Positions 40,985 through 63,189 of a stretch of 64,000 nucleotides of DNA are shown here, piece after piece. The stretch covers positions 3,278,001 through 3,342,000 of the forward strand of contig CP053031.1 in the NCBI GenBank assembly GCA_021496505.1, read 5' to 3'. The notes beneath the pieces were generated by a model. That model saw only the letters and a list, made by a program, of their open reading frames with translations, was not told the origin of the DNA and ran no database searches. Origin of the DNA: Thermoleophilia bacterium SCSIO 60948 (GTDB taxonomy: Bacteria; Actinomycetota; Thermoleophilia; Solirubrobacterales; 70-9). The position numbers and the translations under genes are program-made. Numbering within the stretch: position 1 is the stretch's first letter; each line of letters opens with the position of its first letter.

Positions 40985-42373
40985 ATGGCTGTGTCGAGCT
41001 CGGCCCCACCGCCGTCACCACCCGCTGGCCGTACCGCCGTGCCCACGCCGGCGCGAACCACGTCGGACCGCGCGCTACCCGGCCCCCGTTCGCCCGGTTG
41101 GTGGCAGACGGCGCACTTCCTCGCCCGCCCGACCGCGTTCTTCGAGCGCCACGGCCGCCGCCATGGCGACATGTTCTTCGTTCGCCTGCAGGGCCTGGCC
41201 ACCGGGAGGATGGTCGTCGTCACGGACCCGTCGCTCATCGAGGAGGTCTTCACGGGCGACCCCGAGATGCTCCGCGCCGGCGAGGCGGCGTATGCCACGA
41301 TCGAGCCGATCGGCGGCCCGAACTCGCTGCTCGTCCTGGATGCGCCCAAGCACCTCGAGGACCGGCGTCTCATGCTGCCGCCGTTCCACGGCGAGCGGAT
41401 GCGCTCGTACGCAGACATCATGGCCGAGGAAGCCGACCGGTCGCTGGCCGGTTGGCCGATCGGGACGCCGTTCGCGCTGCGCCCGCGGATGGCCGACATC
41501 ACCCTCGACGTCATCATGCGCGCGGTCTTCGGCCTCGAGCGCGACGCCCGCTACGAGGAGCTGCGCCGGGCGCTCGTGGCCATGGTCGAGAACGACAGGG
41601 CGGTCAGCACCGGGCTGATGGTCCCGGCGCTCCGGCGCGATGTCGGCCCGTGGCGCGGGTGGAACGCCTTCCAGGCGGCGATCGCACACGCCGACGAGCT
41701 GATCTACGACGAGATCAGCCGCCGGCGCGCCGAGCCCGACCTCGCCGCCCGCGAGGACATCCTCTCGATGCTGATCGCCGGCCGGCGCCGCGACGGGAGC
41801 CAGATGGACGACCGCGAGCTGCGCGACGAGCTCGTCACGATGCTTCTCGCCGGACACGAGACGACCGCCACCGGCCTGGCATGGACCTTCGAGCTGCTGT
41901 TCCGCCACCCTGCCGCGATGGCCCGGCTGCGCAAGGAGCTCGCAACGGGCGACGACGTGTACCTCGAGGCGGTCGTCTACGAGGCCCTTCGGGTCAGGCC
42001 GGTCATCCCGTTCGTCGTCCGCGTCCTCAAGCAGCCGATGGAGCTCGGCGGGCACCTGCTGCCCGAGGGGGTGACCGTGGTTCCGGCCATCCACCTCGTC
42101 CACCGGCGCCCCGACCTGTACCCCGAGCCGGCCGCGTTCCGTCCCGAGCGCTTCCTCGACCGCAAGCCCGGCACGTATGAGTGGCTGCCGTTCGGCGGCG
42201 GCATGCGGCGCTGTATCGGCGCGAGCTTCGCGCTGTTCGAGATGAAGGCGGTGCTGCGCCACATCCTCACGCGGACCGAGCTCGGGCCGGCGAGCGCCCG
42301 TCAGGAGCGCATCCGGCGCCGCGCGTTCACCCTCGTCCCGGAGCATGGCACGCCTGCCATTCGCCTGGTGTGA
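40985..42373 (+). CDS. Cytochrome P450 monooxygenase
   Basis: A 462-residue P450. The I-helix is MLLAGHETTATG near 285, the ExxR motif is VVYEALRVRP, the PERF motif is RPERFLDRKPG, and the heme loop FGGGMRRCIGASFALFEM puts the Cys near 410. The style is of the CYP110/138-like group that hydroxylates fatty acids and terpenoids. Its stop overlaps the next P450 start as GTGTGA. Redox partners are not encoded beside it. Confidence 0.92.
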   Translation: MAVSSSAPPPSPPAGRTAVPTPARTTSDRALPGPRSPGWWQTAHFLARPTAFFERHGRRHGDMFFVRLQGLATGRMVVVTDPSLIEEVFTGDPEMLRAGEAAYATIEPIGGPNSLLVLDAPKHLEDRRLMLPPFHGERMRSYADIMAEEADRSLAGWPIGTPFALRPRMADITLDVIMRAVFGLERDARYEELRRALVAMVENDRAVSTGLMVPALRRDVGPWRGWNAFQAAIAHADELIYDEISRRRAEPDLAAREDILSMLIAGRRRDGSQMDDRELRDELVTMLLAGHETTATGLAWTFELLFRHPAAMARLRKELATGDDVYLEAVVYEALRVRPVIPFVVRVLKQPMELGGHLLPEGVTVVPAIHLVHRRPDLYPEPAAFRPERFLDRKPGTYEWLPFGGGMRRCIGASFALFEMKAVLRHILTRTELGPASARQERIRRRAFTLVPEHGTPAIRLV

Positions 42374-43800
42374 CGGCGACTCACGGAGGCACCCGCACGG
42401 CCGACGTCCACGGCATCCCCACCAATCCGCTCCAGCGGATCGTCAGCGACCTCGCGCGCGAGCGCCGAACGCCCACGCCGTACCCGCCGGGCGACACGCG
42501 GCCCTCCCCTCGCCGAACGCGGCAGTTCATCCGTGAGCCGCTCCCGCTCCTGCTCGACGCCTACGAGCGGTACGGGCCCGTCTTCACGCTCCGGATCTTC
42601 CACCACAACGTGGTGTTCATGATCGGCGCCGAGGCCAACCACTTCGTGACGGTCTCCCACCCGGAGCTGTTCCGCTGGCGCGACGGACACATGGGAGAGC
42701 TCACGCCGCTCATCGGCCACGGCCTGCTGACCACCGACGGCGCCGAGCACCGGACGGCCCGGAAGCTCATGCTTCCCGCCTTCCACCGCGAGCGCCTGGC
42801 CGCGACGCTCGACACGATGCTCGACGAGACCGACCGCGGACTGGACACCTTGACGCTCGGCAAGCCGGTCGACCTGTACCACTGGACGCGACGCCTGGCC
42901 CTGCGAATCGCCATGCGCTGCCTGTTCGGACTCGATCCCGGCCGGGCGAGGGCGGAGATCGACGCGGCGCACGAGTTCGAGGTCGCCCTCGGGTTCCACG
43001 GCCATGACGTGCCGATCCAGATGCTGCGCGGCCCCGGCACCCCGTGGCACCGGATGCTGCGCGCACGGCGCCGTCTCGACGCGCTCATCTACGCCGAGAT
43101 CGCCGACCGCCGCCGCCGTGGCGGCGGCGAGGACCTGCTGACGATGCTCGTCGCCGCGACCGACGAGGACGGTCGCGCGCTGGACGACCGGCAGATCCGC
43201 GACCAGGTGATGACGCTGCTGTTCGCGGGGCACGACACGACCACGGCGACGATCGCGTTCCTCTTCTACGAGCTCGCGCGCCACCCGCACGTCCTCGCCG
43301 GTCTCGAGGCCGAAGTCGCGCAGGCCCTGCAGGGGTGCTTCCCCGGCTACGGCGAGCTGATGGGCGGCGGCCTACCGCGACTCGACGCCGCCCTGGACGA
43401 GACGTTGCGGTTGTATCCCGCAGCGTGGCTCGGTCCCCGCCGCGCGCAGGAGACGTTCGAGTTCGCCGGCGGCACCATCCCGCGCGGAGCGTACGTCGAG
43501 TACTCGTCCTGGGCGACGCACCATCTGCCCGAGCTCTTCCCGGAGCCCGAGGCGTTCAGGCCCGAGCGCTTCACCGACGGATCGGTCGCGCGGCTGCCGA
43601 AGGGCGCCTACCTGCCGTTCGGTGGGGGGTCGCGCACGTGCATCGGCATGCGCTTCGGTCAGCTCGAGATCAAGGCGAGCGCTGCGCGGATGCTCCCTCG
43701 GCTCCGCCTCGAGCTCCAGCCCGGCTACCGCCTGGAGACTCGTCAGACGCCGACGCTCGGGCCCCGCCGCGGCATGCCGATGACCGTCCGCGCCGCCTGA
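42370..43800 (+). CDS. Cytochrome P450 monooxygenase
   Basis: A 476-residue P450 of the same broad group as the gene before it. The I-helix is LLFAGHDTTTATIAF near 285, ExxR is DETLRLYP, PERF is RPERFTDGS, and the heme loop FGGGSRTCIGMRFGQLEIKA has its Cys near 424. GTG 42370 overlaps the upstream stop, so the two are coupled. The pair could oxidise the same skeleton at two positions. The N-terminus has no membrane anchor. Confidence 0.92.
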   Translation: MTATHGGTRTADVHGIPTNPLQRIVSDLARERRTPTPYPPGDTRPSPRRTRQFIREPLPLLLDAYERYGPVFTLRIFHHNVVFMIGAEANHFVTVSHPELFRWRDGHMGELTPLIGHGLLTTDGAEHRTARKLMLPAFHRERLAATLDTMLDETDRGLDTLTLGKPVDLYHWTRRLALRIAMRCLFGLDPGRARAEIDAAHEFEVALGFHGHDVPIQMLRGPGTPWHRMLRARRRLDALIYAEIADRRRRGGGEDLLTMLVAATDEDGRALDDRQIRDQVMTLLFAGHDTTTATIAFLFYELARHPHVLAGLEAEVAQALQGCFPGYGELMGGGLPRLDAALDETLRLYPAAWLGPRRAQETFEFAGGTIPRGAYVEYSSWATHHLPELFPEPEAFRPERFTDGSVARLPKGAYLPFGGGSRTCIGMRFGQLEIKASAARMLPRLRLELQPGYRLETRQTPTLGPRRGMPMTVRAA

Positions 43801-43810
43801 ATCTCCGATC

Positions 43811-44461
43811 TCAATCGGCGGGGGCGGGGCTCGCGGTCAGGGCCGGGTACGCGGCGGCGTAGGCGGCCATGAGCTCGGCGAACGGCAGGTCCGATCGCAT
43901 CCCATGGTCGCGCACGTACTCCATGTGCCGCGCGCCGTCGCCCGTGTAGCCGTGCAGCAGCGCATCCCCGGTGCCGTCGAAGTCCAGCGGCGGGACGCCG
44001 AACCGGGCGCACAGCTCGCGGTTGAACGCCGGGCTCGCCTTGCGCCAGGCACCGTCGACGAACAGCACGCTGTAGCCGTGGTAGAGGAACAAGTCCGTGC
44101 CCATCGCCGCTCGCAGGCGTTCGGACTGCAGGTGGTTGCGGACGTCGGCGAAGCCGAGGCGGGCAGGCACGCCGGCCGCACGTGCGGCGGCCGTGAGCAG
44201 GACCGCCTTGGGAACGCAGTACGCCGCGCCGGCCTCGAGCACGGCGCTCGCGCGGTAGTCCGCGGGGTGGACCGACAGCGAATAGGGGTCGTAGCGGATC
44301 TCGTCGCGGACCGCGGCGAACAGACGCGCAACGACGCTCCGTTCATCCGCGGACCCTTCGGTGACGCGGTGGGCGAACGCCCGGACGGTCTCGTTATCGC
44401 TGTCGACGAAGCGGGTCGGCGCGAGATCCAGCGGCGTGGACGCTGCGGACACCCGGCTCAC
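43811..44461 (-). CDS. Transglutaminase-like Cys-protease-fold protein
   Basis: A 216-residue protein with the transglutaminase-like core: catalytic Cys in AAYCVPKAVLLTAAARAAG (about 79), His in YHGYSVLFVDG (about 127) and Asp/Asn near ASPAFN. This fold is used by peptidases and amide hydrolases. It is the last gene of a beta-oxidation operon, coupled by GTGA overlap to the dehydrogenase, where a hydrolase acting on an acyl or amide bond is possible. No signal peptide is seen, so it is cytoplasmic. Confidence 0.75.
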   Translation of the reverse strand: MSRVSAASTPLDLAPTRFVDSDNETVRAFAHRVTEGSADERSVVARLFAAVRDEIRYDPYSLSVHPADYRASAVLEAGAAYCVPKAVLLTAAARAAGVPARLGFADVRNHLQSERLRAAMGTDLFLYHGYSVLFVDGAWRKASPAFNRELCARFGVPPLDFDGTGDALLHGYTGDGARHMEYVRDHGMRSDLPFAELMAAYAAAYPALTASPAPAD

Positions 44462-46784: not shown

Positions 46785-46794
46785 GTCGTGCTCC

Positions 46795-47641: not shown

Positions 47642-47645
47642 GATG

Positions 47646-48473
47646 TCAGGAGGCCATCCCGACGAACAATCCACCGGTCACGTTCAGCACCTGGCCGTGG
47701 ACGTAGTCCGACAGCGGCGAGCAGAGGAAGAAGATGCCGCGCGCGGCCTCGTCGGGCGTCGCCGCCCGCCCCAGCGGGATCATCATCTTCATCATCTCGC
47801 GCATCTGCTCCGGCACGCCGACCTGCACGCTGCGCCCACCGACATCGACCACCGTGTCCTCGCCCTTGGGGACCGTCAACCGCGTGTCGATGAAGCCGAA
47901 CGCGGCCGCGTTGACGTTGACCTTGAACTGGCCCCACTCCTTGGCCAGCGTCTTGGTGAGGCCGACGACACCCGCCTTCGCAGAGGAGTAGTTGGCCTGG
48001 CCGGCGTTGCCCATGGTGCCGGCGATCGACGTCACGTTGACGATCTTGCGGAACACCTCGCGGCCCTCGTCGCGCTCGCGCTTGGCGGGCTCGCGCAGGT
48101 GCGGCGCGGCAGCCCGGCACACGCGAAACGGCACGATCGTGTGGATGTCGAGCATGCGCTGGAACGCGTCGTCGTCCATCTTGTGGATCGGCGCGTCGAT
48201 CGTGTAGCCGGCGTTGTTGACGATGATGTCCAAGCGCCCCCACGCGTCGATCGCCGTCGTGACGAGCTCGTCGGCGGCACCGTCCTTCGTCAGGTCGCCG
48301 GCATGGACGACCGTGTCGCCGTCGATCTCGGAGGAGGTCTGCTCGGCCACGTCGCCGTCGAGATCGTTGATCACGACCTTGGCCCCTTCCCGGCTCAGCA
48401 GCTCTGCGGTAGCGCGGCCGATCCCGCGTGCCGAGCCGGTGATGATCGCGACCCTGTCGTCCAGCATGCCCAT
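47646..48473 (-). CDS. Short-chain dehydrogenase (3-hydroxyacyl-CoA type)
   Basis: A 275-residue SDR: IITGSARGIGRATAELL (about 9-25), NNAGYTI (about 86), VTSIAGTMGNAGQANYSSAKAG (Ser near 148, Tyr/Lys near 160) and C-terminus YVHGQVLNVTGGLF. It resembles the 3-hydroxyacyl-CoA dehydrogenase of multifunctional proteins, a role that fits first place in an operon with MaoC, thiolase and dehydrogenase. It is divergent from the TetR at 48569 across a 95-base gap. Confidence 0.88.
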   Translation of the reverse strand: MGMLDDRVAIITGSARGIGRATAELLSREGAKVVINDLDGDVAEQTSSEIDGDTVVHAGDLTKDGAADELVTTAIDAWGRLDIIVNNAGYTIDAPIHKMDDDAFQRMLDIHTIVPFRVCRAAAPHLREPAKRERDEGREVFRKIVNVTSIAGTMGNAGQANYSSAKAGVVGLTKTLAKEWGQFKVNVNAAAFGFIDTRLTVPKGEDTVVDVGGRSVQVGVPEQMREMMKMMIPLGRAATPDEAARGIFFLCSPLSDYVHGQVLNVTGGLFVGMAS

Positions 48474-53371: not shown

Positions 53372-53512
53372 GTGGTCGACGCCGCGCTTGTCCTCGTCCT
53401 CGCGGCCGTGGCCGTCGCCTTCCCCCTCGTCGGCGAGCTCGCGCCCGCCGCCGCTCTCGGCCTCGGCGCCGCGGCAATCGGACTCGGCGCGTCCTTCACG
53501 CGCTACGCGTGA
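53372..53512 (+). CDS. Small hydrophobic protein, 46 aa
   Basis: Short GTG-started frame encoding a nearly all-hydrophobic peptide (ALVLVLAAVAVAFPLVGELA and ALGLGAAAIGLGASFTRY), two possible membrane helices. No family is recognised. A frameshift remnant of a longer membrane protein is equally possible. It ends 22 bases before the BtrH_N gene. Confidence 0.35.
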   Translation: MVDAALVLVLAAVAVAFPLVGELAPAAALGLGAAAIGLGASFTRYA

Positions 53513-53534
53513 GCCGATCGGTAGCCTTTGGCCG

Positions 53535-54566
53535 GTGCAAACGATCGTTCACAAGTTCCCGCATCGGCGCGCTGGCCACTGCGGCTCGGGAGCGCTGCGC
53601 GACCTGCTCGAGTTCCACGGCCTGAGCTACGGCGACGCGGCGCTGCGCGAAGGCGCCGTCTTCGGCCTGTCCGGTGGGCTCGGCTTCTTCTACGCCGCGC
53701 TGGCGGGCATCCAGCCGCCCGTCTACCTCGTCGGCCGGACCGCCGATCTCGAGCGGGACTTCTGCTCGCACGTCGGCGTCGACCTCGACCTGCGCCAGAC
53801 CGATGATCCGGACGAAGGCTGGGCGGTGCTGCGCGGCGAGCTCGATGCCGGTCGCCCGACGATGGTCTGGGCGGACATCAAGCACCTGGACTACCTGCGG
53901 GTGCGGATGCACAACACGATGCACGACATCGTCGTCTGCGGCTACGACCTCGAGGACGGCGTCGCCTTCGTGGCCGACAACGACCGCGACGACCTGCAGC
54001 GCTGCTCGCTGGAGTCCCTCGCACGGGCCCGAAACTCGGCGGCGTTCCCCGGGCCGAACCGGCACGCGACGTGGGTGATGAGCTGGCCGTCGGAGCTGCC
54101 GGCAGCGCGCGCCGTCGTCGCGCGCGCGATCGAGCGGGCGGTGGAGAACATGGCCGGCCCGGCTCAGCCGGTACTCGCCGGAACGGGCGCCGGGGGGCTC
54201 GCCGGCGTGGACCTCTTCGCCGGCGAGTACGAGGGATGGCCCGACCAGTTCGGCGACGACCTCGGCGCGGTGCTGCGCGGGCTGGCGGTGTTCATCGTCA
54301 AGGCGGGCACCGCCGGGGCGATGTTCCGGTCGCTGCACGCGGACTTCCTGTTCGACGCGGCCCGGTGGCTCGACGACGAGCAACTCGACGAGCTCGGCGC
54401 GACGTATGCGGCGCTCAGCGAGCGTTGGCGGCTGCTGGCCGCCGCCGTCAACGGCGAGGACGATCCGGTCGCGGCACACGCCGCGGGTCGCGACCATGTC
54501 GCGCACATCGCCGGGCTCGAGCACCGCGGCGTCGAGGAGATGCAGGCGTGGCTGGCGACGCGCTGA
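53535..54566 (+). CDS. BtrH_N/DUF4872 acyltransferase-like protein
   Basis: A 343-residue protein. The BtrH_N domain (about 8-145) has FPHRRAGHCGSGALRDLLEF (conserved His15-Cys16) and GAVFGLSGGLGFFYAALAG, and the DUF4872 domain follows (about 165-335) with VFIVKAGTAGAMFRSLHADF. BtrH in butirosin synthesis transfers an acyl group from a carrier protein, so an acyl transfer or peptidase-like reaction is expected; it is not proven here. GTG 53535 is the start, and a family-A site overlaps the first codons. A thioesterase follows with a 19-base overlap. A second copy of the pair is at 60967-62426. Confidence 0.8.
   Translation: MQTIVHKFPHRRAGHCGSGALRDLLEFHGLSYGDAALREGAVFGLSGGLGFFYAALAGIQPPVYLVGRTADLERDFCSHVGVDLDLRQTDDPDEGWAVLRGELDAGRPTMVWADIKHLDYLRVRMHNTMHDIVVCGYDLEDGVAFVADNDRDDLQRCSLESLARARNSAAFPGPNRHATWVMSWPSELPAARAVVARAIERAVENMAGPAQPVLAGTGAGGLAGVDLFAGEYEGWPDQFGDDLGAVLRGLAVFIVKAGTAGAMFRSLHADFLFDAARWLDDEQLDELGATYAALSERWRLLAAAVNGEDDPVAAHAAGRDHVAHIAGLEHRGVEEMQAWLATR
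53537..53552. promoter_or_regulatory. Family-A operator overlapping the BtrH_N start
   Basis: GCAAACGATCGTTCAC covers codons 1-6 of the BtrH_N gene and has the perfect core AACGATCGTT. Binding here would block initiation or transcription. Confidence 0.55.
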
Positions 54567-55033
54567 CCACGCCGGACGGCTGGTTCCGGCCGCACCAGCC
54601 GAACTGCCTGGGCTGTGGCGATGAGAACCCGCTGGGGCTGCGGCTGCGCATGCGGCCGCGAGGCGAGGGAGTCAGCGGCGAGGTCACGTTCCGGCCCGAG
54701 CACGAGGGTGCGCCCGGCTTCGCGCACGGTGGCGCGGTGGCGACGGCGCTCGACGACGCGTTCGGGATGATGCTCGTCAAGCTCGGGCTTCCGGCGGTCA
54801 CGGCGCGGCTGGAGGTCGACTACCGGCGGCCGGTGTTCGTCGGGCGCCCGTACACGGTCCGCGCCGAGTGCGAGCGGCGCGAGCGTCGGAAGCTGTGGCT
54901 GGAAGCGGGGCTCCTCGAGGGCGGCGTCGTCGCGGCAGCGGCGCAAGCGCTGTTCGTGCGCGTCGACGAGCGCCACTTCCTCCAGGGACGCGAGCACGCG
55001 TCCGACGGAGGACAGCGGCGCCTGCCGTGGTGA
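54548..55033 (+). CDS. Hotdog-fold acyl-CoA thioesterase (PaaI-like)
   Basis: A 161-residue hotdog protein. NCLGCGDENPLGLRLRM is the N-terminal motif common in PaaI/THEM-like thioesterases, and GAPGFAHGGAVATALDDAFG carries the HGG and Asp active-site region. ARLEVDYRRPVFVGRPYTV is the following strand. GTG 54548 overlaps the BtrH_N stop by 19 bases. It likely frees acyl groups from CoA or from a carrier and works with the BtrH_N protein. Confidence 0.85.
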   Translation: MAGDALTTPDGWFRPHQPNCLGCGDENPLGLRLRMRPRGEGVSGEVTFRPEHEGAPGFAHGGAVATALDDAFGMMLVKLGLPAVTARLEVDYRRPVFVGRPYTVRAECERRERRKLWLEAGLLEGGVVAAAAQALFVRVDERHFLQGREHASDGGQRRLPW

Positions 55034-55039
55034 CCGTCG

Positions 55040-55985
55040 TCACGGCGGGTCCCGCAGCAGGGGGACGTAGGCGCCGCGCTTGTCGCGGAAGGCTTGCGGC
55101 CGCTGAGTCAGGCAGGGAGGCGATGGGCCCGTGGCCGGGACGTCTGGCGGTTCGACGTATGCGCACAACTGAACGACTCGAGCGCGCCGGGGAGGCGGTC
55201 GAGCCAGCGCGGCGCCGGATAGGCGTTCGAGCGGTTCGTGGGCTCGCGATCACGATAGAGGAGGAAGTTCTCCTTGTTGATCGGCAGCAGGCCGCGGGCA
55301 TAGTGCAGCGGCGGACGCCCCGGTCGCGGCTCGGACGCCTGGAAGAAGCTCGCCGTGTTCGCCCACGAGGCGATGATCTCCTGGCGGTCGCGAGCAAGGT
55401 ACTCGGTCACGGGGACGATCTCGCGCCCGAGCGGATGCAGCTGCCCCAGCAACGGCCGTGCCGCGCGCAGCAGCCGATCGGCGGCCGGCAGCGCCGTCGA
55501 AGAGGTGTCGATGTTCCGGTCCAACCGCCGCAGGGTCGCACCGAGGTCCTGGACCGCTGCGGCCAGATCGTGGAGCGTCGGGCGGACCAGCGGCGCGACC
55601 GGCAGCAGCGCCCGGACGACCGGCCGCCCGGCGCGCGAGGTCGCCTGGAGCTCGGCCAGCGCCGGGCGCGGGGCGCGCAGGAACGGCGGGAGCTCGCGGA
55701 CGGTCCGGCGCAGCTCGGCGTTGCGCGCCGCGGTCCGTGCCAGGACACTGTCCCCGCTGCGGATCAGACGCTGCACGGCAGTCTCGCGCCGACCGACCGT
55801 CCGGAGCACGACCCCGCCGTCGCGGATCAGGCGCCCCACGACCGCCGATTGGGTGTCGACGCGCGCGAGCAGGCCGCTCGCGTCCTCGGCAAACGGGGCG
55901 GCGTTCGCCACCGCCGCCGACACGTCCGGCCCGCGGCCCCGCACCGCCACCTCCAGCTCGCTCAGCCACGTCCGCAGATCGTGGC
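55040..55985 (-). pseudogene. Mce-family protein, 3' fragment with frameshift
   Basis: Only the C-terminal half of an Mce (MlaD-like) lipid-uptake protein remains. HDLRTWLSELEVAVRGRGPD starts near 55985, and helical heptads follow (DRLLRAARPLLGQLHPLGRE) with IASWANTASFFQA and ENFLLYRDREPTNRSNAYPA. Near 55108 a stop occurs, but RPQAFRDKRGAYVPLLRDPP, the usual Mce end, continues in another frame to 55040. The N-terminal MCE beta domain is absent and replaced at 55985-56000 by part of a kinase-like gene. No ABC or other mce genes are next to it. Confidence 0.7.
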
Positions 55986-55997
55986 GCGTCGGCGGCC

Positions 55998-56203
55998 CCC
56001 GTCTGGGCCGCCTCATGGATGAGCCGCTCGGTCTCGGCACGGAACTCGCGCTCGCCGGACTCGCGTGACGACGCGGCGTTCCCGTGCCACGGCGCCAACG
56101 ACCCGAACGAGCGGAGCACACGCGCCATCCTGGCCGGAACAGCCTCGTCGTAGGCAAGCGCCCGCTCGAGCGGAACGGCAAGGCGTCGGGCGACCTCGGC
56201 AGG
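55998..56203 (-). pseudogene. Cytidylate-kinase-like gene, N-terminal fragment
   Basis: Minus-strand sequence reads PAEVARRLAVPLERALAYDE, a region ending ARVLRSFGSLAPW, and FRAETERLIHEAAQTG. This is like the part after the P-loop in cytidylate kinase-like (PF13189) proteins. It lacks the P-loop itself, and at its 3' end it joins the Mce fragment. The rest of the protein is found on the other strand at 56204-56424. Confidence 0.6.
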
Positions 56204-56424
56204 CGATGCGGGTGCAGGGCATCGACCGGGAGACCGCGCGGCGTCGGCTCCGACAGAGCGACCGGGCTCGCCACGCCTACGCCCGGCACGTGTACGGCAC
56301 CGATCCGCGCGACACCCGGCTCCATCACATCGTGATCGACTCCACGGCCATGGACCGCGCGACGTGTGTCGACCTCCTCACGCTCGCGGCGTTCTCCAGG
56401 TCCGAGCGCCGGGCGCACCGGTGA
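56204..56424 (+). pseudogene. Cytidylate-kinase-like gene, C-terminal fragment
   Basis: Plus-strand sequence reads MRVQGIDRETARRRLRQSDR, ARHAYARHVYGTDPRDTRLH and HIVIDSTAMDRATCVDLLTL, the C-terminal lid and last helices of the same kinase-like family. It begins at the joint near 56203, where the N-terminal fragment starts on the opposite strand. The two pieces together explain one gene broken by an inversion or by two separate joins. Confidence 0.6.
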
Positions 56425-56441
56425 CATGTTCGCTTGCTCGA

Positions 56442-56459
56442 ATGTACCGATCGGCGTAG
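56442..56459. promoter_or_regulatory. Family-B operator-like site
   Basis: ATGTACCGATCGGCGTAG shares AATGTACCGATCGGCG with the site at 63171. It is about 110 bases upstream of the universal stress protein gene. Confidence 0.5.
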
Positions 56460-56567
56460 AATGAGTCGCGAGGCCATGGCATGTCCATCTCTCGCGCGCG
56501 TCTGCCGGCGACTGGTTCCGTCGCCGCCGGCGCTCCGCGGCCCAGCGCCGGCCGAAGGGAACGGAGG

Positions 56568-57078
56568 ATGTTCCGCAGTGTCCTTGTAGCAGGTCGGTGG
56601 GTCTCCCGCCGACGCGGCCGCCGTCGAGCAGGCCGTCGACCTCGCGCTCGGCGAGCACGCGCGGCTGACGCTCCTCGCCGCGCTGCCCGGCCTGCCGGCC
56701 ATGGCCTACCTGGCACCCGTCACCCCCGTCGGCGAGCTGCCCCCCGCCCGTGCGGCATGTGAGACGGTCCTGCGCCAAACCGCCGCCAGCGTACCCGCCG
56801 AGCTGCCGGTCACGACGCTGCTCGTCGAGGGGCCGGCGCGCCGGGCGCTCGTCCGCGAGGCCCGGCGCGGCGGATATGACCTGCTCGTCGTCGGCTCGTC
56901 GACGCGGCGACGGCTGCCGGCAGCGCTGGGCGGAGACCTCGGCGCGGCGCTCGTGCGACGCTGCGCGATCCCGGTCCTCGTGGTCCGCTTCCCGGCGGTC
57001 GAGCCCGTGGCGGCGGCGCCGCAGCCGTCGCCCGTGACCGCGCTTGGCGTCCCGGGGAGACGGCATGCCCGGGCTTGA
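56568..57078 (+). pseudogene. Universal stress protein with one-base frameshift
   Basis: A UspA-fold protein. MFRSVLVA starts at 56568, one extra base follows near 56590, and the rest reads in another frame: GGSPADAAAVEQAVDLALGE, AALPGLPAMAYLAPV, then YDLLVVGSSTRRRLPAALGG and CAIPVLVVRF. The ATP-binding GSxxR-like GSSTRR is present. Because only the first 8 codons are cut off, a downstream start could still give a shortened protein. The next gene starts 14 bases before its stop. Confidence 0.7.
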
Positions 57079-57535
57079 GCCGCGCGCGCTCGACGCGCTC
57101 AGTCAGATGCTCGGGGCGCTGCTGCTGTCGGTCGCGGCCGTGGTCGTCGGTCTGCTCTACGCACTGCTGACGGCGATCGCCAACCGACGGCGCCGGCCGC
57201 CCGCCGCGCCATCTTCGCCGATCGACGGCTATCTCGTCGGCCGGACGGACGATGACGGCGCCGCCCTGTACGTCCTCGACGAGCATGGCGTCCGCCGCAT
57301 CGCCCGGGTTCGCCTGCCGGACGACCTGGCTGCGTCCTCCCATCGGCTCATCGCGCTGCTCCGCCATGGCCGCGCAGGCGCGCCGCCGGCCAAACCCGCG
57401 ACGATGGACATCCGCCTGCCTGAGGACTGGCGCGAGGAAGGGTTCAGCGTGCCGCTGACCACCGCCGCGCCGACCGGTCGACGTCGCCGCCGCGACGGCC
57501 GGCGCGGCATCTCGCCCCGCGCCCGGCGCCGCTGA
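57065..57535 (+). CDS. Single-pass membrane protein, unknown
   Basis: A 156-residue protein with one membrane helix at about 13-38 (LGALLLSVAAVVVGLLYALL), a short basic linker and a soluble domain with GYLVGRTDDDGAALYVLDEH and SSHRLIALLRHGRAG, ending in an Arg-rich tail. No family is recognised. ATG 57065 is inside the USP end. It may be a membrane partner of the USP or an unrelated protein. Confidence 0.55.
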   Translation: MPGLEPRALDALSQMLGALLLSVAAVVVGLLYALLTAIANRRRRPPAAPSSPIDGYLVGRTDDDGAALYVLDEHGVRRIARVRLPDDLAASSHRLIALLRHGRAGAPPAKPATMDIRLPEDWREEGFSVPLTTAAPTGRRRRRDGRRGISPRARRR

Positions 57536-57544
57536 CGATCAGCG
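57530..57544. terminator. Hairpin between convergent genes
   Basis: CGCTGA-CGA-TCAGCG is a perfect 6-base stem overlapping the stop of the membrane protein gene and just before the stop of the TetR gene. Confidence 0.45.
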
Positions 57545-58153
57545 TTACCGGGCCTCGGTCGCGGAGGCCAGCCACCCCTGGAACGCCGCGATCGCCTTGG
57601 CGAGCTGCGGCGTGTCGCCGTGCGTCAGCCATTCGAGGGTCAGGCCGTTGATGCCGGCGATGATCAGCACCGTCAGCGTCTCCTCGTCCATGCGCAGCGC
57701 ACGTCCGCGTTCTCTCGCGCGCGCGGCCATGAGCGCGATGAGCTCGCGGTAGCCGTCGGTGACGTAGGCGATCGTCGACCGGAGCCTGGGATCGGTCACC
57801 GCCTCGGCGACCAGCCCGAAGTACGCGGTCAGCAGAGCCCGATCCGACGTGACGCCCGACCAGAAGCTGTCGAATCCGACCGCCACGATGTCGGGCGGGT
57901 CTTCAAGGTCGCGCACGGCGTCGGCCACGCTCGCCAGCAGGGCATCGCCCACCCGCCGGACCACCGCGTCGAAGAGCTGCTCGCGGCTGGCGAAGTAGTA
58001 GTGGACCATGCGCTTCTGCACGCCCGCCTCGACGGCGATGCGCTGCACCGACGTCGCGGCGTAGCCATCGCGGGCGAGGCAGCGCACGGTCGCCTCGATG
58101 ATCGACTCGGCCGCTCGTTCGCCCTTGGGTGTGGTGGCGCGAAGACCCGTCAC
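57545..58153 (-). CDS. TetR-family regulator (intact paralogue of the 13.0 kb TetR)
   Basis: A 202-residue TetR protein. The HTH is GYAATSVQRIAVEAGVQKRM and VHYYFASREQLFDAVV, at about 31-66. The ligand domain carries VAVGFDSFWSGVTSDRALLT and ends GINGLTLEWLTHGDTPQLAK. It is nearly identical to the frameshifted TetR at 13007, which shows how that gene should read. A family-B site (58199) lies 46 bases upstream, and other family-B sites lie near the P450 by the paralogue, so it is the best candidate for their ligand. Confidence 0.9.
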   Translation of the reverse strand: MTGLRATTPKGERAAESIIEATVRCLARDGYAATSVQRIAVEAGVQKRMVHYYFASREQLFDAVVRRVGDALLASVADAVRDLEDPPDIVAVGFDSFWSGVTSDRALLTAYFGLVAEAVTDPRLRSTIAYVTDGYRELIALMAARARERGRALRMDEETLTVLIIAGINGLTLEWLTHGDTPQLAKAIAAFQGWLASATEAR

Positions 58154-58198
58154 GTCCGCAACCCTAATCGGTGCCGGCCCGCGCAGCGGAGCCGCACA

Positions 58199-58216
58199 GT
58201 TCGTCGATCGGCGACT
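58199..58216. promoter_or_regulatory. Family-B operator between divergent TetR genes
   Basis: GTTCGTCGATCGGCGACT is a near-palindrome about the core CGATCG, in the gap of two divergent TetR genes, fitting autoregulation. Confidence 0.55.
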
Positions 58217-58246
58217 TCGCGCCGCGGACGGGGATATGGTCCGCGC

Positions 58247-58845
58247 ATGGCGACCTCGTCGTTCGATCGCGGGTACCGCTCGCGGGAGGTGCGCCGCCGG
58301 GACTTCGTGGGCGCCCTCGAGCGGCTGCTGGCCGACGGTTGCCGGTTCAGGGAGATCACCGTCCGGCAGCTCGCGGACGAGGTGAGGTTGTCACGCACGG
58401 GGTTCTACTTTCACTTCGGGCACACGCGCGACGTTGTGCTCGCAGCCGCGACGGGCATCTCGGCTGACCTGTACGAGGCCGCAGACACTGGCTCGGCGAC
58501 GACGATGCCGGGTTGGACGGACTGGAGGCAGCGCTGGCCCGGATCGCCGAGGGGTACCGCAGCCATGCCCCCGTGCTGCGGGCGGTGCGCGAGGCCGCCG
58601 CGTACGACGACGCGCTGCGCGCCGAGTGGCGCCGGCTCATCGGGCGCTTCGTCGTCGCCACCCCGGGGCCGGCTCGAACGAGCTACGCCGGGCCAGACGC
58701 GCGGCCTGCAGGCGGCCGCGCTCGTCTGGATGACCGAGCGCACGCTTCTCGAGCAGGTGGCGACCGACGGCGACGATCCGCACAGGTCTCCGCCGCTTTG
58801 GCGCGCATCCGGTGGGCGGCGCTCGCCGGGCGGGACTCGGGGTAG
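58247..58845 (+). pseudogene. TetR-family regulator with several frameshifts
   Basis: The HTH is intact in the first frame: FREITVRQLADEVRLSRTGF and YFHFGHTRDVVLAAATG. After about 58500 the sequence moves to a second frame (LEAALARIAEGYRSHAPVLR). Near 58665 it moves to a third (GLQAAALVWMTERTLLEQVA), and near 58780 it shifts again to SAALARIRWAALAGRDSG. The order of parts matches the TetR at 20079 (VWMTERTL). It is a real decayed gene or a badly resolved stretch. Confidence 0.7.
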
Positions 58846-58862
58846 GGCGGTTCCGCCCTACC
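58837..58862. terminator. Strong inverted repeat, probable terminator
   Basis: A perfect 12-base stem, GGGGTAGGGCGG, with a TT loop and its full complement. It covers the TetR remnant stop and lies downstream of the SGNH gene, so it can serve both directions. Confidence 0.6.
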
Positions 58863-59064
58863 CCGCCCGTTCGTCCCGGTGACGGGCGAAATGCGTCGGC
58901 GCGCCGCGAGCGGGCAGGCGACCGTCTCACGGTTACAGTCCGACGCCGGCGTGGAGCACCGCGAGCGTGCCGGTCGCACCGGTGCCACCGACGGACGACC
59001 GAGCCGGCGCGCCTTGCTGTCCCGCGGCCCGCGGGGGCCCGCTGCCCCGCCGCCCGGCACGGCG
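58863..59064. other. Gap downstream of SGNH gene
   Basis: No gene is supported here. Open frames on both strands lack motif or ribosome-site support. It is likely 3' flank of the SGNH gene. Confidence 0.4.
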
Positions 59065-60920
59065 CTAGAGCCGCCGGACGGACAGGACCTCCTGGTCGGC
59101 ATCGCCGCCCGCCGATGCCTGGACAACGACGCGGACGTCCCCACGGCCGATGCGCTCGGCCGGCACGCGCAGGCGGACGAGCGCACCCGCCCGGACGCGC
59201 CGCGCTGCCAATCGGCGGATGGTCCTCGTGCCCTGCTCGACCCGGACGCGGACGGTCGCCTGCCGCGCGACGCGGAACGCCACGCGCAGGGGGCGGTTGG
59301 TCCGTCCGCCGAACACCGGGCGTTCGGCCTTGGCCAGGCGCAGCAGCCCGCACGGGTCCGCGGCGGCGAACGTCGGCAGCAGTGCGAACCGTCCGCTTCT
59401 GCGGCGCACCGCAATGCGCCGGACCAATCGACCGTGCCGCAGGCGGACGAGGAACGTCCCGTCGGTGACCCGCCGCCCTCGTCGCGTGGCCCGGCCCCGC
59501 CAGGTGCGCGCCGAGCGACGGAGAGAGAACCGTGCGACCAGGCGGTTTCCAAGGATCCTGCGCCCGCGATCGTGCTGGAAGACGTCGACGCGCACGTTCT
59601 CCAGATCTCGCGGGAGCACGAAGCGCAGCCCGCGCCCGCGCGGGCGGAGCGCAATCCGTTCGAGCGCGGAGCGACGCGCGCACGCGCCGAGCGAGCTGCC
59701 GGCCGAGCCGGCCGGGTCGGAAGCCCGCGCGGGCGGAACGACGACGGGCGTCGGCGCGCCGGCCGTCCGAGCGAGGACCATGCCCTCCGGCCCCGTCCCC
59801 GGGGTGTTCGTGCACGCGAACGATCCGGGCGGCTCGCGGTAGAGCAGGCTCAGGCACGTCCCGATCGCCTGCTGCGCGTACGCGTTGGGGTGGAAGACCT
59901 CCTGGACCTCGCCCTGAGCGATGGCGCCGACACTGAGGGCGCGCCCCCACTCGCTGCGCTCGGGCGAGGGCGGGGAGGCCGGGGTCGCGGCCTGGGCGGT
60001 CTTCGCGCAGATCTCGCGACCCTGTAGCGCGTTGACGAGCTCGAGCACCTCGACGCCTCGCGACCGGGCGGCCGCCTTGCTCACCGCGCCGATCTGCGGC
60101 GCGGCCACGTCGCGCGCCCAGTCCAGGTCGGCGTCGTAGAACGGGCAGCCGTCGCTGGTGCGGCGCGGGTCGGCCTCCGCGTACCGCGCCTCAGCGGCGC
60201 GCGGCATCACCGACGGATACGTCTGCATGACGAGCCGGTAGTCGCCCGGGCCGTAGCCGGCTGCCGCCATCACGGCTCGGATCTCGTCGATCGCACGTTC
60301 GACGTCGGCGATGACGCGCGGCACCAGCGCGTCGATCTGCGCCTGCTGCTCGTCGCGGCACGGACCACTGCGTGTCTCGTAGGCGAGGAAGCAGGCCGTG
60401 ACGATCGAGGCGAAGCCGAGGTCATTGCCGCCGAGCGAGAGAACGATGAGCTTCACGTCGCGATCGCGGGCGATCGGGGCGAGCTGGTCGGCCTGCGGCG
60501 CCTCGCCGTTCTGACCTCGCCGCCGCTCGACGCGCGGTAGATGTTCCTGGTCTGGCCTCCCGAGCAGCTGATGTTGAGCTTCTCGTCGGCAGGGATGCGG
60601 GCGCTGCGGATCTCGGCGACGTCGGAACGATGGCATCCGCTGTCGCTGCCGCCGACGTAGACCCGCGCCGGGTCGTAGGTGCAGGCGAGCGCCGGCAGCA
60701 GCGGCGCGCACGCCCGATCGGTGCCGTCGCGGTCGCCCGCGGGGTTGACCGAGTTGCCCTGCCAGCGACCGGCCTCTCCGGAGATGTAGCTGTCACCCAT
60801 GCTGACCACCGCCGTGTACGACGCCCCCGGACCAGCGAACGCCTCACCGCTCGACGACAGCGCTGCCGTGAGCATGGCCACGGCGACAAGGAGGGTTCGG
60901 GACGAAACGCAGCGGAGCAC
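59065..60920 (-). pseudogene. Secreted SGNH/GDSL hydrolase with one frameshift
   Basis: GTG 60920 starts a signal peptide (LLVAVAMLTAALSSSGEAFA). SGNH block I is VVSMGDSYISGEAGRW with the catalytic Ser, and a disulfide-rich region follows (RACAPLLPALACTYD). Near 60517 one base is changed or lost, and SLGGNDLGFASIVTA (block III Gly/Asn) and VFHPNAYAQQ (block V His) are in the new frame. After about residue 370 an Arg-rich beta-repeat domain extends to the end, with several strand-like repeats (VRVDVFQHD, DGTFLVRLRHG). It is probably an exported esterase or lipase; frameshift or sequencing error leaves activity uncertain. Confidence 0.75.
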
Positions 60921-60923
60921 GCG

Positions 60924-60941
60924 ACGTACCGTACGGCGAAC
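60924..60941. promoter_or_regulatory. Family-B operator upstream of SGNH gene
   Basis: ACGTACCGTACGGCGAAC, one base from the site at 12923, lies directly before the SGNH start. Confidence 0.6.
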
Positions 60942-60966
60942 TTCCCGTGGGCGCGCCGGTCGGCCG

Positions 60967-61458
60967 TCAGGGCGCCACGGGCGTCTCGCCGGACGGCCAA
61001 TCGCGCCAGCGCTCGGGAAGCTCGCGCCCGCCGCGCTGGAAGTGCGCGAGGTCGACCTCCACGAACAGCGCACGGGCACGGGCGATCAGCGTCTCGCCGT
61101 CGCGCAGCTCCCCTTCCAGATGGAGCTTGCGCCCCTCGGCGCGGTCGCACCATGCCTCGACGTCGAGCTCGCGCTCGAGGAACGCCGGCGCCCGGTAGTC
61201 GACCTCGAGCCGCGCGGTCACGGCCGGGCGCCGGACGAGGATCAGCACGGTCCCGAGCGCGTCGTCCAGAACCGTCGCGACCGCGCCGCCGTGCGCGAAG
61301 CCGGGCGCGCCCTCCTGCCGGCGGTCGAAGCGCACGCGCCCGCGCACCCGCTCGCCGACGACCTGCATGCGCAGGCCCATGCTCGCCGGATTCTCCGGCC
61401 CGCACCCGAGGCAGTGGGGCTGGTGGGCGGGGACGATCCCGTCCGCTTCGGGCATCAT
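60967..61458 (-). CDS. Hotdog-fold acyl-CoA thioesterase, second copy
   Basis: A 163-residue paralogue of the thioesterase at 54548: HCLGCGPENPASMGLRM, GAPGFAHGGAVATVLDDALG and ARLEVDYRAPAFLERELDV match the same motifs in the same order. ATG 61458 overlaps the stop of the BtrH_N paralogue (ATGA), so the pair is coupled as in the first module. It is 46 bases from the SGNH start downstream, which may be cotranscribed. Confidence 0.87.
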   Translation of the reverse strand: MMPEADGIVPAHQPHCLGCGPENPASMGLRMQVVGERVRGRVRFDRRQEGAPGFAHGGAVATVLDDALGTVLILVRRPAVTARLEVDYRAPAFLERELDVEAWCDRAEGRKLHLEGELRDGETLIARARALFVEVDLAHFQRGGRELPERWRDWPSGETPVAP

Positions 61459-62426
61459 GCGGCGGTCTCCGTCCACCGCTCCATCCGGTCGACCCCGTCG
61501 GCCTCCAGCCGCGCGATTTGCGCGACGGCCGGGACGCCCGCCACGTGTGCGAGGGCGGCATCGTCGCTCTCGGAGATCCGCGCGAGCTCGCCGTACGTCT
61601 CGGCCAGCTCGTCGTAGACAGCGCCGATCCGCGCGAGTTCCGCGTCATCGAGCAGGCCCGCGGCGTCGTGCAGGAACGTCGCGTGCAGCGACCGGAACAT
61701 CGCGCCGCCCGTCCCGGCCTTGACGATGAACACGCGCAGGCCACGCATCGCCGCCGGCAGGTCCTCGCCGAACGTGGCCGGCCAGCGCTCGTAGCCGGCC
61801 GCGAAGGCGTCCGCGCCAGCAAGCCCGGTCTGTCCGGCCAGACCGGCAAGCGCCTCGCCGCCGTCGCCGCGCATGTTGCCGACCGCCCGCGCGATCGCGT
61901 CCTGCAGCGCCTCGCGCGGCGGCCGGAGCGGGCCGGCGAAGCTGTAGGGGAACATCCGGTTGCGGTTCGGGCCCGGGAACCCGTCGGAGTTCCGCGCGGC
62001 CGCGAGCGAGTCCAGCGAACAACGCTGAAGCTCCTCGCGGTCGTTGTCGGCGACCAGCGCGACACCCTCGCGCTCGTCGTAGTCGACGACGACGACGTCG
62101 TGGCGCCTGTTGTGCATCCGCACGCGCAGGTCCTCGAGGCGGCCGATGTCCGCCCACACCATCGGCGGTGTGCCCGCGTCGACCTGCTCCTTGACCCAGG
62201 CCCACGCCCGCCTGTCGTCGCCGGTCCCGCGCACGTCGAGCGGGAGCCCGAGGTGCGAGGCGACGTCGATCTCGAGGTCGGCGGTGCGCCCGACGAGGAA
62301 CTCGAGCAGATCACGCAGCGCACCCGAGCCGCAGTGCCCCGCCTTGCGGTGCGGGAACCGGCGGCTCGCGACGGCAGGGTCCGCGTCGCGACGGTCAGCG
62401 GGGGCCGCCGGTCTCTCGTCGTTCAT
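61455..62426 (-). CDS. BtrH_N/DUF4872 paralogue with internal deletion
   Basis: A 323-residue paralogue of the protein at 53535. FPHRKAGHCGSGALRDLLEF is kept, but the next 37 residues of the copy at 53535, which include FGLSGGLGFFYAALAG, are missing and the frame continues at LVGRTADLE. The DUF4872 part (VFIVKAGTGGAMFRSLHATF) is intact. The lost segment forms the core after the His-Cys pair, so acyl transfer may be lost or altered. A perfect 22-base palindrome is at 62445-62466 upstream. Confidence 0.8.
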   Translation of the reverse strand: MNDERPAAPADRRDADPAVASRRFPHRKAGHCGSGALRDLLEFLVGRTADLEIDVASHLGLPLDVRGTGDDRRAWAWVKEQVDAGTPPMVWADIGRLEDLRVRMHNRRHDVVVVDYDEREGVALVADNDREELQRCSLDSLAAARNSDGFPGPNRNRMFPYSFAGPLRPPREALQDAIARAVGNMRGDGGEALAGLAGQTGLAGADAFAAGYERWPATFGEDLPAAMRGLRVFIVKAGTGGAMFRSLHATFLHDAAGLLDDAELARIGAVYDELAETYGELARISESDDAALAHVAGVPAVAQIARLEADGVDRMERWTETAA

Positions 62427-62444: not shown

Positions 62445-62466
62445 GCGTTCGCCGATCGGCGAACGC
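62445..62466. promoter_or_regulatory. Perfect family-B palindrome upstream of BtrH_N copy 2
   Basis: Perfect 22-base palindrome with core GTTCGCCGATCGGCGAAC (62447-62464). It starts 19 bases upstream of the BtrH_N copy 2 start and gives the best consensus for the family. Confidence 0.7.
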
Positions 62467-62489: not shown

Positions 62490-63110
62490 TCACCGCGACC
62501 CGAGCAGGAGACCAGCGCCAGGCCGACGGCCAGACCGACCGACACCCAGCGAAGGACCCACGTCAGCGGCGGCGCCGGGGCAGCGGCCTGCGCCGAGCGT
62601 CGCGGTCGCGGTCGGGTGGCGGCGACACGCTCGTAAGCGGCTGGGCGTGTCCTGGGCGATCGCCGCCACGTCGATCTCGCGCTTGACGATCTTGCCGGTC
62701 GGGCCCTTCGGCAGCTCGCTCACGCACACGACCTGCCGCGGGTACTTGTAGGCGGCCACGCGATTCTTGGCCCACGCCCGCAGCTCCTCCGCGCCGGTGT
62801 CCGCGTCCGGGCGCAGCACCACCATCGCCACCACCTCCTCGCCCAGCTCGGCGTGCGGCACGCCGACCACCGCGGCTTCGAGCACCGCGGGGTGCTCGTA
62901 CAGCACCTCCTCGATCTCGCGCGGGTAGACGTTGTAGCCGCCTCGGATGATGAGGTCCTTCTTGCGGTCGACAGTGAAGACGAAGCCGTCCTCGTCCACC
63001 CGCGCCATGTCGCCGGTCCGGAACCAGCCCTGCGGCGAGATGGCCTCCGCGGTCGCGTCGGGACGGCCGTGGTAGCCGCACATGACGTTGTGGCCGCGCG
63101 GCGAGGTTGA
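62490..63110 (-). pseudogene. Acyl-CoA synthetase, 3' remnant
   Basis: Only the C-terminal part of an ANL (AMP-forming) acyl-CoA ligase remains: RGHNVMCGYHGRPDATAEAI, GWFRTGDMARVDEDGFVFTV, DRKKDLIIRGGYNVYPREIE and LPKGPTGKIVKREID (catalytic Lys). The P-loop and the N-terminal 350 or so residues are missing before about 63105. The open frame runs past the expected end into unrelated codons to 62490. The ORF can be extended upstream to 63212, but that part lies in an operator region and is not coding. Confidence 0.8.
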
Positions 63111-63171
63111 GTCACAGCGGTTCTCCGGCGGTCGGGAGGCATCCAAGCGGTCCGGCGGCCGCCCGTCCGCA

Positions 63172-63189
63172 ATGTACCGATCGGCGAGT
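63172..63189. promoter_or_regulatory. Family-B operator-like site upstream of MMPL gene
   Basis: ATGTACCGATCGGCGAGT shares 16 bases with the site at 56442. It lies 53 bases before the MMPL start and 62 bases before the ligase remnant. Confidence 0.5.

What the first reader, a model, noticed from the sequence alone, without database searches (positions are those of the whole stretch)
53535..62426. Duplicated BtrH_N/DUF4872 plus hotdog thioesterase module
Two gene pairs (53535-55033 and 60967-62426) have the same order and translational overlap, and each has an operator at its start. BtrH is known for acyl transfer in butirosin synthesis, while a BtrH_N protein paired with a thioesterase in a catabolic or cell-envelope setting is not a system I recognise. 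The pair could load and release acyl groups from a carrier or CoA, possibly linked to the nearby SGNH hydrolase.
Basis: partly seen in the sequence, partly recalled or inferred. Interest (0 to 1): 0.7.

Follow-up and report, generated by a model that had tools for sequence, protein, structure and literature searches.

The report
Acyl-transfer pair in hydrocarbon-oxidation gene clusters
Two neighbouring gene pairs each encode a cysteine-type acyltransferase of the antibiotic-enzyme BtrH family plus a thioesterase, and the same pair recurs beside hydrocarbon- and sterol-oxidising P450 genes in soil bacteria and on catabolic plasmids, which points to an unrecognised acyl-handling step in hydrocarbon breakdown.

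Summary
The two pairs are real: BtrH_N+DUF4872 proteins 52% identical, hotdog thioesterases 58% identical, same order, overlapping frames, and a CCGATCGG-centred palindrome before each. Copy 2's BtrH protein, however, lacks 37 residues that are conserved in every relative examined and is probably inactive. The two pairs are not a recent duplication. The pairing is conserved: 17 of 28 close BtrH copies in Solirubrobacterales genomes are followed directly by the thioesterase. Every thioesterase-paired locus with adequate flank has a cytochrome P450 within 8 kb (13/13, against 0/5 without the thioesterase). Orthologues of both genes sit in CYP153 alkane-hydroxylase operons on Rhodococcus, Gordonia and Dietzia plasmids and in Nocardioides; a more distant version lies in the CYP153 operon of 44 Acinetobacter plasmids. 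A third recurring partner, a transglutaminase-like protein, is also in the window (43811-44452). The predicted fold (pLDDT 95) matches CcbD, CtaG and AziU3, thiotemplate enzymes of antibiotic biosynthesis. Best reading: a Cys-His-Asp acyltransferase fed by acyl-CoA from P450 oxidation, with a partner acyl-CoA hydrolase; the acceptor is unknown. An aminoglycoside pathway and a link to the SGNH hydrolase are unsupported. No paper found in the searched library describes BtrH proteins in CYP153 operons.

The parts
53535..54566 (+). BtrH_N + DUF4872 protein, copy 1 (343 aa); putative triad C16/H130/D148; predicted intact acyltransferase
   Evidence: Pfam; alignment; AlphaFold pLDDT 95.1; Foldseek CcbD/CtaG/AziU3
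54548..55033 (+). PaaI-like hotdog thioesterase, copy 1, GTG start overlapping the end of the BtrH gene
   Evidence: Pfam 4HBT; alignment A2
53512..53523 (.). operator-like site AGCCGATCGGTA, 11 bases before the copy 1 start codon
61455..62426 (-). BtrH_N + DUF4872 protein, copy 2 (323 aa), with an in-frame loss of 37 residues of the catalytic lobe; probably inactive
   Evidence: low-confidence N-terminal lobe in model
60967..61458 (-). PaaI-like hotdog thioesterase, copy 2, ATGA overlap with the BtrH gene; apparently intact
   Evidence: 76% identical to the G032 thioesterase
62445..62466 (.). perfect 22-bp palindrome GCGTTCGCCGATCGGCGAACGC upstream of copy 2; only match (up to 1 mismatch in the 16-bp core) in the genome
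57545..58153 (-). TetR-family regulator of a subfamily that recurs beside the pair; likely repressor of the module
   Evidence: neighbours in L034, L035, L036, L038, L044, L052, L057 and others
58199..58216 (.). operator-like site (3 mismatches to the copy 2 palindrome) 46 bases upstream of the TetR gene
43811..44452 (-). transglutaminase-like (papain-type) protein, 56-64% identical to proteins beside BtrH in Rhodococcus, Gordonia and M. avium plasmids and in Svornostia; probable third member of the module
41039..43800 (+). two cytochrome P450 genes (41039-42373, 42370-43800), the nearest P450s to copy 1

Best explanation
Shown by sequence: the pair is a conserved two-gene acyl-handling module that travels with P450-based oxidation of hydrophobic compounds (CYP153 alkane hydroxylases; CYP124/125-like P450s) in Actinomycetota, with a distant version in Acinetobacter. 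Inferred: a P450 oxidises a terminal carbon, dehydrogenases make the acid, and a CoA ligase makes the acyl-CoA. The BtrH protein attacks the acyl thioester with Cys16 (His130/Asp148), forms an acyl-enzyme, and hands the acyl group to an amine or hydroxyl acceptor, as its structural relatives do. The hotdog thioesterase hydrolyses surplus or dead-end acyl-CoA and frees CoA. A TetR repressor binding the CCGATCGG palindromes controls the module. In this genome copy 1 carries the full activity; copy 2 probably supplies only the thioesterase. The acceptor is not identified.
For: Triad positions: C16 and H130 are conserved except in rare divergent lineages, and D148 is invariant in 42 relatives. The AlphaFold model (pLDDT 95.1, pTM 0.93) matches AziU3, CcbD and CtaG (E 2e-10 to 7e-7, TM 0.48-0.65); the PDB titles list CcbD bound to a carrier-protein domain and CtaG C11A/H128A/D144N variants, a triad with similar spacing. 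NCBIfam names the closest model 'BtrH-related acyltransferase DarH'. 17 of 28 close BtrH copies have the thioesterase directly downstream. P450 within 8 kb in 13/13 loci with an adjacent thioesterase and 5 kb or more of flank, 0/5 loci without it; these genomes hold only 5-34 P450s in 2.4-5.5 Mb, one case 1 in 2.2 Mb. CYP153-type operons with BtrH and PaaI thioesterase: Rhodococcus L108-L111, L117, L119, Dietzia L112, Gordonia L114, Acinetobacter L115, Nocardioides L059, Patulibacter L057; P450 identity was checked for three of them, L059, L108 and L115. FadD lies beside BtrH in L108 and L110. TetR and operators.
Against: No activity has been measured on any member of this clade. Many relatives (11 of 28 close copies) lack the directly adjacent thioesterase, and in Dietzia and Gordonia it lies some 5 kb away on the other side of the P450, so the two enzymes need not work as one unit. 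One CYP153-type locus (M. chubuense, L118) has no annotated BtrH within the 20 kb read. BtrH_N proteins also occur beside a metH-like gene, beside a RarA-like gene, and in kynurenine or acetone gene clusters, so the family is not tied to P450s. The acceptor is unknown. In the window itself the nearest P450 is 10 kb from copy 1.
Confidence: 0.5

Rival explanations
1. The BtrH protein is a hydrolase, not a transferase: a cysteine thioesterase, esterase or amidase that together with the hotdog enzyme clears toxic acyl-CoAs or esters during hydrocarbon oxidation.
For: The papain-like fold includes many hydrolases, and water could be the acceptor (PMC10318531). Peptidase_C39_2 gives a weak hit. A second, cysteine-based release enzyme beside a thioesterase fits a detoxification role.
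Against: The closest structural matches over the full length are thiotemplate condensing or transfer enzymes; hydrolases match only part of the chain and more weakly. A hydrolase would duplicate its thioesterase partner.
Confidence: 0.25
2. The BtrH/thioesterase pair is part of a biosynthetic pathway (aminoglycoside, resorcinol ester or lipopeptide type) that happens to lie in catabolic islands.
For: BtrH itself, CcbD, CtaG and AziU3 are biosynthetic; the DarH model is the best NCBIfam match, at 97 bits.
Against: The DarH curated cut-off is 300 bits. No carrier protein, NRPS/PKS or aminoglycoside genes are recurrent or annotated in the loci read; the constant neighbours are P450, ferredoxin, ferredoxin reductase, dehydrogenases, CoA ligase and acyl-CoA dehydrogenases.
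Confidence: 0.08
3. The association is hitch-hiking: mobile catabolic islands collect many genes and BtrH/thioesterase has no role in the oxidation pathway.
For: Acinetobacter copies lie between two Tn3-family ISAcsp1 transposases and are nearly identical on 44 plasmids, so those are not independent. Distribution in Solirubrobacterales is patchy (about 19 of 232 genomes).
Against: The link recurs with different P450 families, gene orders and replicons, in Actinomycetota chromosomes and plasmids and in Gammaproteobacteria. BtrH often follows the ferredoxin reductase or SDR gene on the same strand, and in several Solirubrobacterales it shares a short divergent promoter region with the P450 gene.
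Confidence: 0.15
4. About copy 2 only (compatible with the best explanation): copy 2 is an assembly error or a decaying pseudogene rather than a variant with a new role.
For: Its 37-residue gap occurs in no other relative and removes the near-invariant E39 and G44. The model's N-terminal lobe is poorly defined (pLDDT 52-74). Adjacent genes are broken: the AMP-binding gene is truncated, the SGNH gene is split.
Against: The 111-base gap is exactly in frame, the rest of the frame is open, triad residues remain, and the thioesterase and the perfect palindrome are intact.
Confidence: 0.7

Closest known systems
BtrH, ACP:aminoglycoside acyltransferase of butirosin biosynthesis (PF14399 + PF16169)
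   Same: BtrH_N domain; papain-like fold; conserved Cys near the N-terminus, then His and Asp
   Different: No acyl carrier protein, aminoglycoside genes or BtrG-like partner in the loci read; a hotdog thioesterase and P450 instead
CcbD (celesticetin), CtaG (closthioamide) and AziU3 (azinomycin)
   Same: Best full-length structural matches in the PDB; CtaG variants C11A, H128A and D144N match our C16/H130/D148 spacing
   Different: 10-18% identity; they belong to antibiotic pathways (CcbD solved with a carrier domain); ours sits with CoA enzymes
DarH/DarE BtrH-like protein of dialkylresorcinol and aryl-polyene clusters
   Same: Best NCBIfam model (NF053550); acyl chemistry on lipid-like molecules
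   Different: 97 bits against a cut-off of 300; no dialkylresorcinol genes seen here
BtrH protein of Desulfotomaculum geothermicum, abundant in acetone-grown cells (PMC8084838)
   Same: A BtrH protein in an inducible, CoA-based catabolic gene cluster
   Different: Anaerobic acetone pathway; function also untested
CYP153 alkane-hydroxylase operon with AraC regulator (CypR), ferredoxin and ferredoxin reductase, as in Dietzia sp. DQ12-45-1b
   Same: The Dietzia plasmid locus read here carries BtrH (and a nearby PaaI thioesterase); its BtrH is 43% identical to copy 1
   Different: The window has no CYP153 operon next to its pairs; it has other P450s and a TetR regulator
THEM4 and PaaI-type hotdog thioesterases
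   Same: Hotdog fold, HGG motif and conserved Asp; THEM4 (4gah, 4ae8) is the best PDB match
   Different: Well below the PaaI equivalog cut-off (25.6 against 118.9 bits); substrate unknown

Membership tests
BtrH_N/DUF4872 family (PF14399, PF16169) | Both domains above Pfam gathering scores | tested here: met
   Copy 1: 139.1 and 110.9 bits; copy 2: 72.1 (BtrH_N matched from position 45 only) and 90.6
BtrH_N/DUF4872 family (PF14399, PF16169) | Conserved Cys-His-Asp positions and the E..FGL.GG.GF segment | tested here: met
   Met by copy 1; copy 2 keeps the three residues but lacks the segment
Papain-like thiotemplate condensing enzymes (CcbD, CtaG, AziU3) | Same full-length fold | tested here: met
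   Foldseek E 2e-10 to 7e-7, prob 1.00, TM up to 0.65
Papain-like thiotemplate condensing enzymes (CcbD, CtaG, AziU3) | Carrier-protein-bound acyl donor (carrier protein encoded nearby) | tested here: not met
   No acyl carrier protein recurrent or annotated in the clusters read; CoA ligases instead. The donor itself was not tested
Butirosin-type aminoglycoside pathway | Carrier protein, aminoglycoside genes and BtrG partner nearby | tested here: not met
   Neighbourhoods are P450 and acyl-CoA catabolism
DarH equivalog (NF053550) | Score of at least 300 bits | tested here: not met
   97.2 bits for copy 1, 43.2 for copy 2
4HBT hotdog thioesterase (PF03061) | Above gathering score | tested here: met
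   47.2 and 42.8 bits against 20.6
PaaI phenylacetyl-type thioesterase (TIGR02286) | Score of at least 118.9 bits | tested here: not met
   25.6 bits for copy 1
CYP153 operon accessory genes | Orthologues inside CYP153-ferredoxin-reductase operons | tested here: met
   Seen in relatives; the window's own pairs are not beside a CYP153 gene
Acyltransferase activity | Acyl-enzyme formation and transfer to an acceptor | not testable with these tools
   Needs purified protein

The most novel reading that the evidence does not exclude
BtrH-type acyltransferase, hotdog thioesterase and transglutaminase-like protein form a general, so far unrecognised acyl-conjugation step of P450-based alkane and sterol oxidation: oxidised chains are transferred from CoA to an amine or hydroxyl carrier and later released, so a chemistry known from antibiotic assembly lines is used in catabolism.
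Probability: 0.3. Interest if true: 0.78.

Novelty: new variant of a known kind. Interest (0 to 1): 0.58.

Why it matters
CYP153 operons are well-studied alkane-degradation loci, yet a gene set that recurs in them from Rhodococcus to Acinetobacter has no assigned role that I could find, and no paper found in the searched library mentions BtrH in them. If the acyltransferase reading holds, alkane and sterol oxidation includes a covalent conjugation step, relevant to surfactant formation, toxicity of fatty intermediates and the use of CYP153 in biotechnology. It is directly testable in existing alkane-degrading strains.

Tried and rejected
Recent tandem duplication: rejected, because copy 1 groups with G041 (no thioesterase) and copy 2 falls elsewhere, and copy 2's thioesterase is closer to G032's (76%) than to copy 1's (54%). 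Link to SGNH hydrolase: rejected. Aminoglycoside or resorcinol pathway: rejected on context and on the DarH cut-off. A single strict operator sequence for all relatives: not found; a palindrome filter missed most sites, and a 12-mer centred on CGATCG is clearly above chance only in copy 1 and four relatives (L034, L044, L048, L052). Copy 2's exact 16-bp core occurs once in the genome, so no large regulon was seen. PDB sequence search with the BtrH alignment gave nothing; only the fold search did. An exact count of the CYP153/BtrH overlap on Rhodococcus plasmids beyond the listed rows was not made.
Full report
OBSERVATION. The two pairs are present. Copy 1: BtrH_N+DUF4872 protein 53535-54566 (+) and hotdog thioesterase 54548-55033 (+), overlapping by 19 bases. 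Copy 2: BtrH 61455-62426 (-) and thioesterase 60967-61458 (-), with a 4-base ATGA overlap. Domain assignments are well above Pfam cut-offs. The copies are 52% identical (BtrH, E 8e-104) and 58% (thioesterase, E 5e-49).

COPY 2 IS DEFECTIVE. Copy 2's BtrH lacks residues 28-64 of copy 1. The segment contains E39 and G44, at least 90% conserved over 42 aligned proteins, and none of the relatives has the gap. Full-length relatives that keep the segment exist in G032 and G079. AlphaFold gives copy 1 mean pLDDT 95.1; copy 2 drops to 52-74 over the catalytic-Cys region while the rest stays high. I conclude, by inference, that copy 2's BtrH is probably inactive. Its neighbours are also damaged: 62490-63083 is only the C-terminal part of an AMP-binding enzyme and the SGNH gene is split into two frames. 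Several single-base frame breaks in 55-60 kb could be decay or sequencing error.

NOT A RECENT DUPLICATION. In a maximum-likelihood tree copy 1 pairs with a G041 protein (98/91 support) and copy 2 sits elsewhere in an unresolved fan.

DISTRIBUTION. The genome has only these two BtrH_N genes. Relatives with readable names are mostly Solirubrobacterales. In 232 genomes of the order, 45 have a match; counting close copies (E below about 1e-130, plus one broken copy in G187) gives 28 in 19 genomes, with up to three per genome. Of these 28, 17 have the specific thioesterase within about 20 bases downstream on the same strand. In the genome collection 14 of 21 loci are paired, including Svornostia, Paraconexibacter, Patulibacter and Nocardioides. 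The 4-base ATGA overlap is itself seen in relatives L034 and L039.

P450 LINK. All 13 loci with an adjacent thioesterase and at least 5 kb of flank contain a P450 within 8 kb, often divergent from BtrH with a short shared promoter region; none of 5 long loci without the thioesterase does (Fisher p about 1e-4 by my arithmetic, not corrected for shared ancestry; three of the 13 come from one genus). P450s are sparse in these genomes: 5-34 each, and one genome with 1. The P450 beside the Svornostia pair is closest to CYP125/CYP124; the one in the Nocardioides operon is CYP153-like.

PLASMIDS. A protein search of plasmids found BtrH proteins about 42-48% identical on Rhodococcus, Gordonia, Dietzia and Mycobacterium plasmids, and distant ones on 45 Acinetobacter plasmids. 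Reading the regions shows, with variations, AraC - ferredoxin - P450 - ferredoxin reductase - (transglutaminase-like, aldehyde dehydrogenase, SDR) - BtrH - (CoA ligase) - PaaI thioesterase. Acinetobacter has ferredoxin - P450 - reductase - metal hydrolase - TetR - BtrH - PaaI - PaaI between two ISAcsp1 transposases. By my comparison of the listed rows, 44 of 45 Acinetobacter plasmids with this P450 also carry BtrH; these copies are near-identical and not independent. The Rhodococcus L108 and Acinetobacter L115 P450s were confirmed as CYP153-like. The window's thioesterases are 40-50% identical to those of the actinobacterial operons; the Acinetobacter thioesterases did not match at E 1e-3.

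THIRD MEMBER. The window's 43811-44452 protein is a transglutaminase-core protein, 56-64% identical to those beside BtrH in Rhodococcus, Gordonia and M. avium plasmids and in Svornostia. In Svornostia an acyl-CoA dehydrogenase, thiolase, two SDRs, CoA ligase, transglutaminase-like protein and P450 lie directly beside BtrH-thioesterase; the window has a similar run (SDR, MaoC-like, lipid-transfer thiolase, acyl-CoA dehydrogenase, transglutaminase-like protein) at 43811-48473, with a cholesterol-oxidase-like gene at 34014-35657.

REGULATION. A TetR gene of one subfamily lies at 57545-58153 and recurs near the pair in G032, G048, G045, G039, L044, L052, Patulibacter and others. CCGATCGG-centred sites precede copy 1 and copy 2 and a related site precedes the TetR gene; similar sites precede BtrH in L034, L044, L048, L052, L053 and L054. 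In Patulibacter L053 both BtrH and TetR have a TCCCCGATCGGGGA-like site. This supports, but does not prove, that this TetR protein controls the module.

MECHANISM. The fold search places copy 1 with AziU3, CcbD and CtaG. CcbD has been solved with a carrier domain and CtaG as Cys11, His128 and Asp144 variants; our C16, H130, D148 have similar spacing. BtrH_N is described as close to the C39 and C70 papain-like families, with BtrH an ACP:aminoglycoside acyltransferase (PMC10318531). The most likely chemistry is therefore acyl-enzyme formation on Cys16 and transfer to a nucleophile; acyl-CoA is the likely donor because CoA ligases, not carrier proteins, recur nearby. The thioesterase would hydrolyse acyl-CoA. 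Steps shown: predicted fold, triad conservation, gene pairing, P450 association. Steps inferred: donor, acceptor, direction, regulation. A BtrH protein is highly abundant in acetone-grown Desulfotomaculum geothermicum within a CoA-based cluster (PMC8084838), an independent catabolic precedent. In Dietzia sp. DQ12-45-1b, CYP153 acts on C8-C10 alkanes and is activated by CypR (as cited in PMC12472514); the plasmid locus read here has the matching AraC-ferredoxin-P450-reductase order with BtrH next, though I did not verify it is the same gene.

NOVELTY. The families are known; the combination and its recurrence in P450 hydrocarbon operons appear undescribed in the searched open library, which lacks most subscription papers.

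Noticed in passing
59065-60875 (-): SGNH/GDSL hydrolase split over two overlapping frames (60453-60875 and 59065-60456): a frameshift from decay or a sequencing error.
   Followed up: partly
58248-58850 (+): A second TetR-like gene appears broken by frameshifts, next to the intact TetR gene at 57545-58153.
   Followed up: no
56568-57078 (+): Universal-stress-like protein that appears interrupted by a frame change near its start.
   Followed up: no
62490-63083 (-): C-terminal fragment only of an AMP-binding acyl-CoA ligase, upstream of copy 2; a site AATGTACCGATCGGCG lies at about 63171-63186.
   Followed up: partly
56445-56456: Another ACCGATCGG-type site, with no intact gene clearly attached.
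   Followed up: no
55108-55944 (-): Fragment similar to the Mce/MlaD protein that lies beside the pair in Patulibacter minatonensis (L039 7320-8768).
   Followed up: partly
L115, L116 (Acinetobacter plasmids): CYP153-BtrH-PaaI genes lie between two Tn3-family ISAcsp1 transposases and occur on many A. baumannii plasmids, an apparently mobile alkane-oxidation unit in clinical isolates.
   Followed up: partly
L040 9654-10709, L041 9554-10507: A BtrH_N subfamily without the catalytic Cys (HAATG/HGASG) sits next to a protein of about 1185 aa that looks like methionine synthase.
   Followed up: no
L012-L032 (mostly family f1 genomes): A separate BtrH_N clade occurs once per genome in many members of the window's own family, but was not found in the window's genome.
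   Followed up: no
L061, L062: Divergent BtrH proteins directly upstream of a RarA-like ATPase gene in two unclassified Actinomycetota.
   Followed up: no
L121 5992-6972: Haladaptatus BtrH protein inside a kynurenine/CoA catabolic cluster (indoleamine dioxygenase, kynureninase, acyl-CoA dehydrogenase).
   Followed up: no
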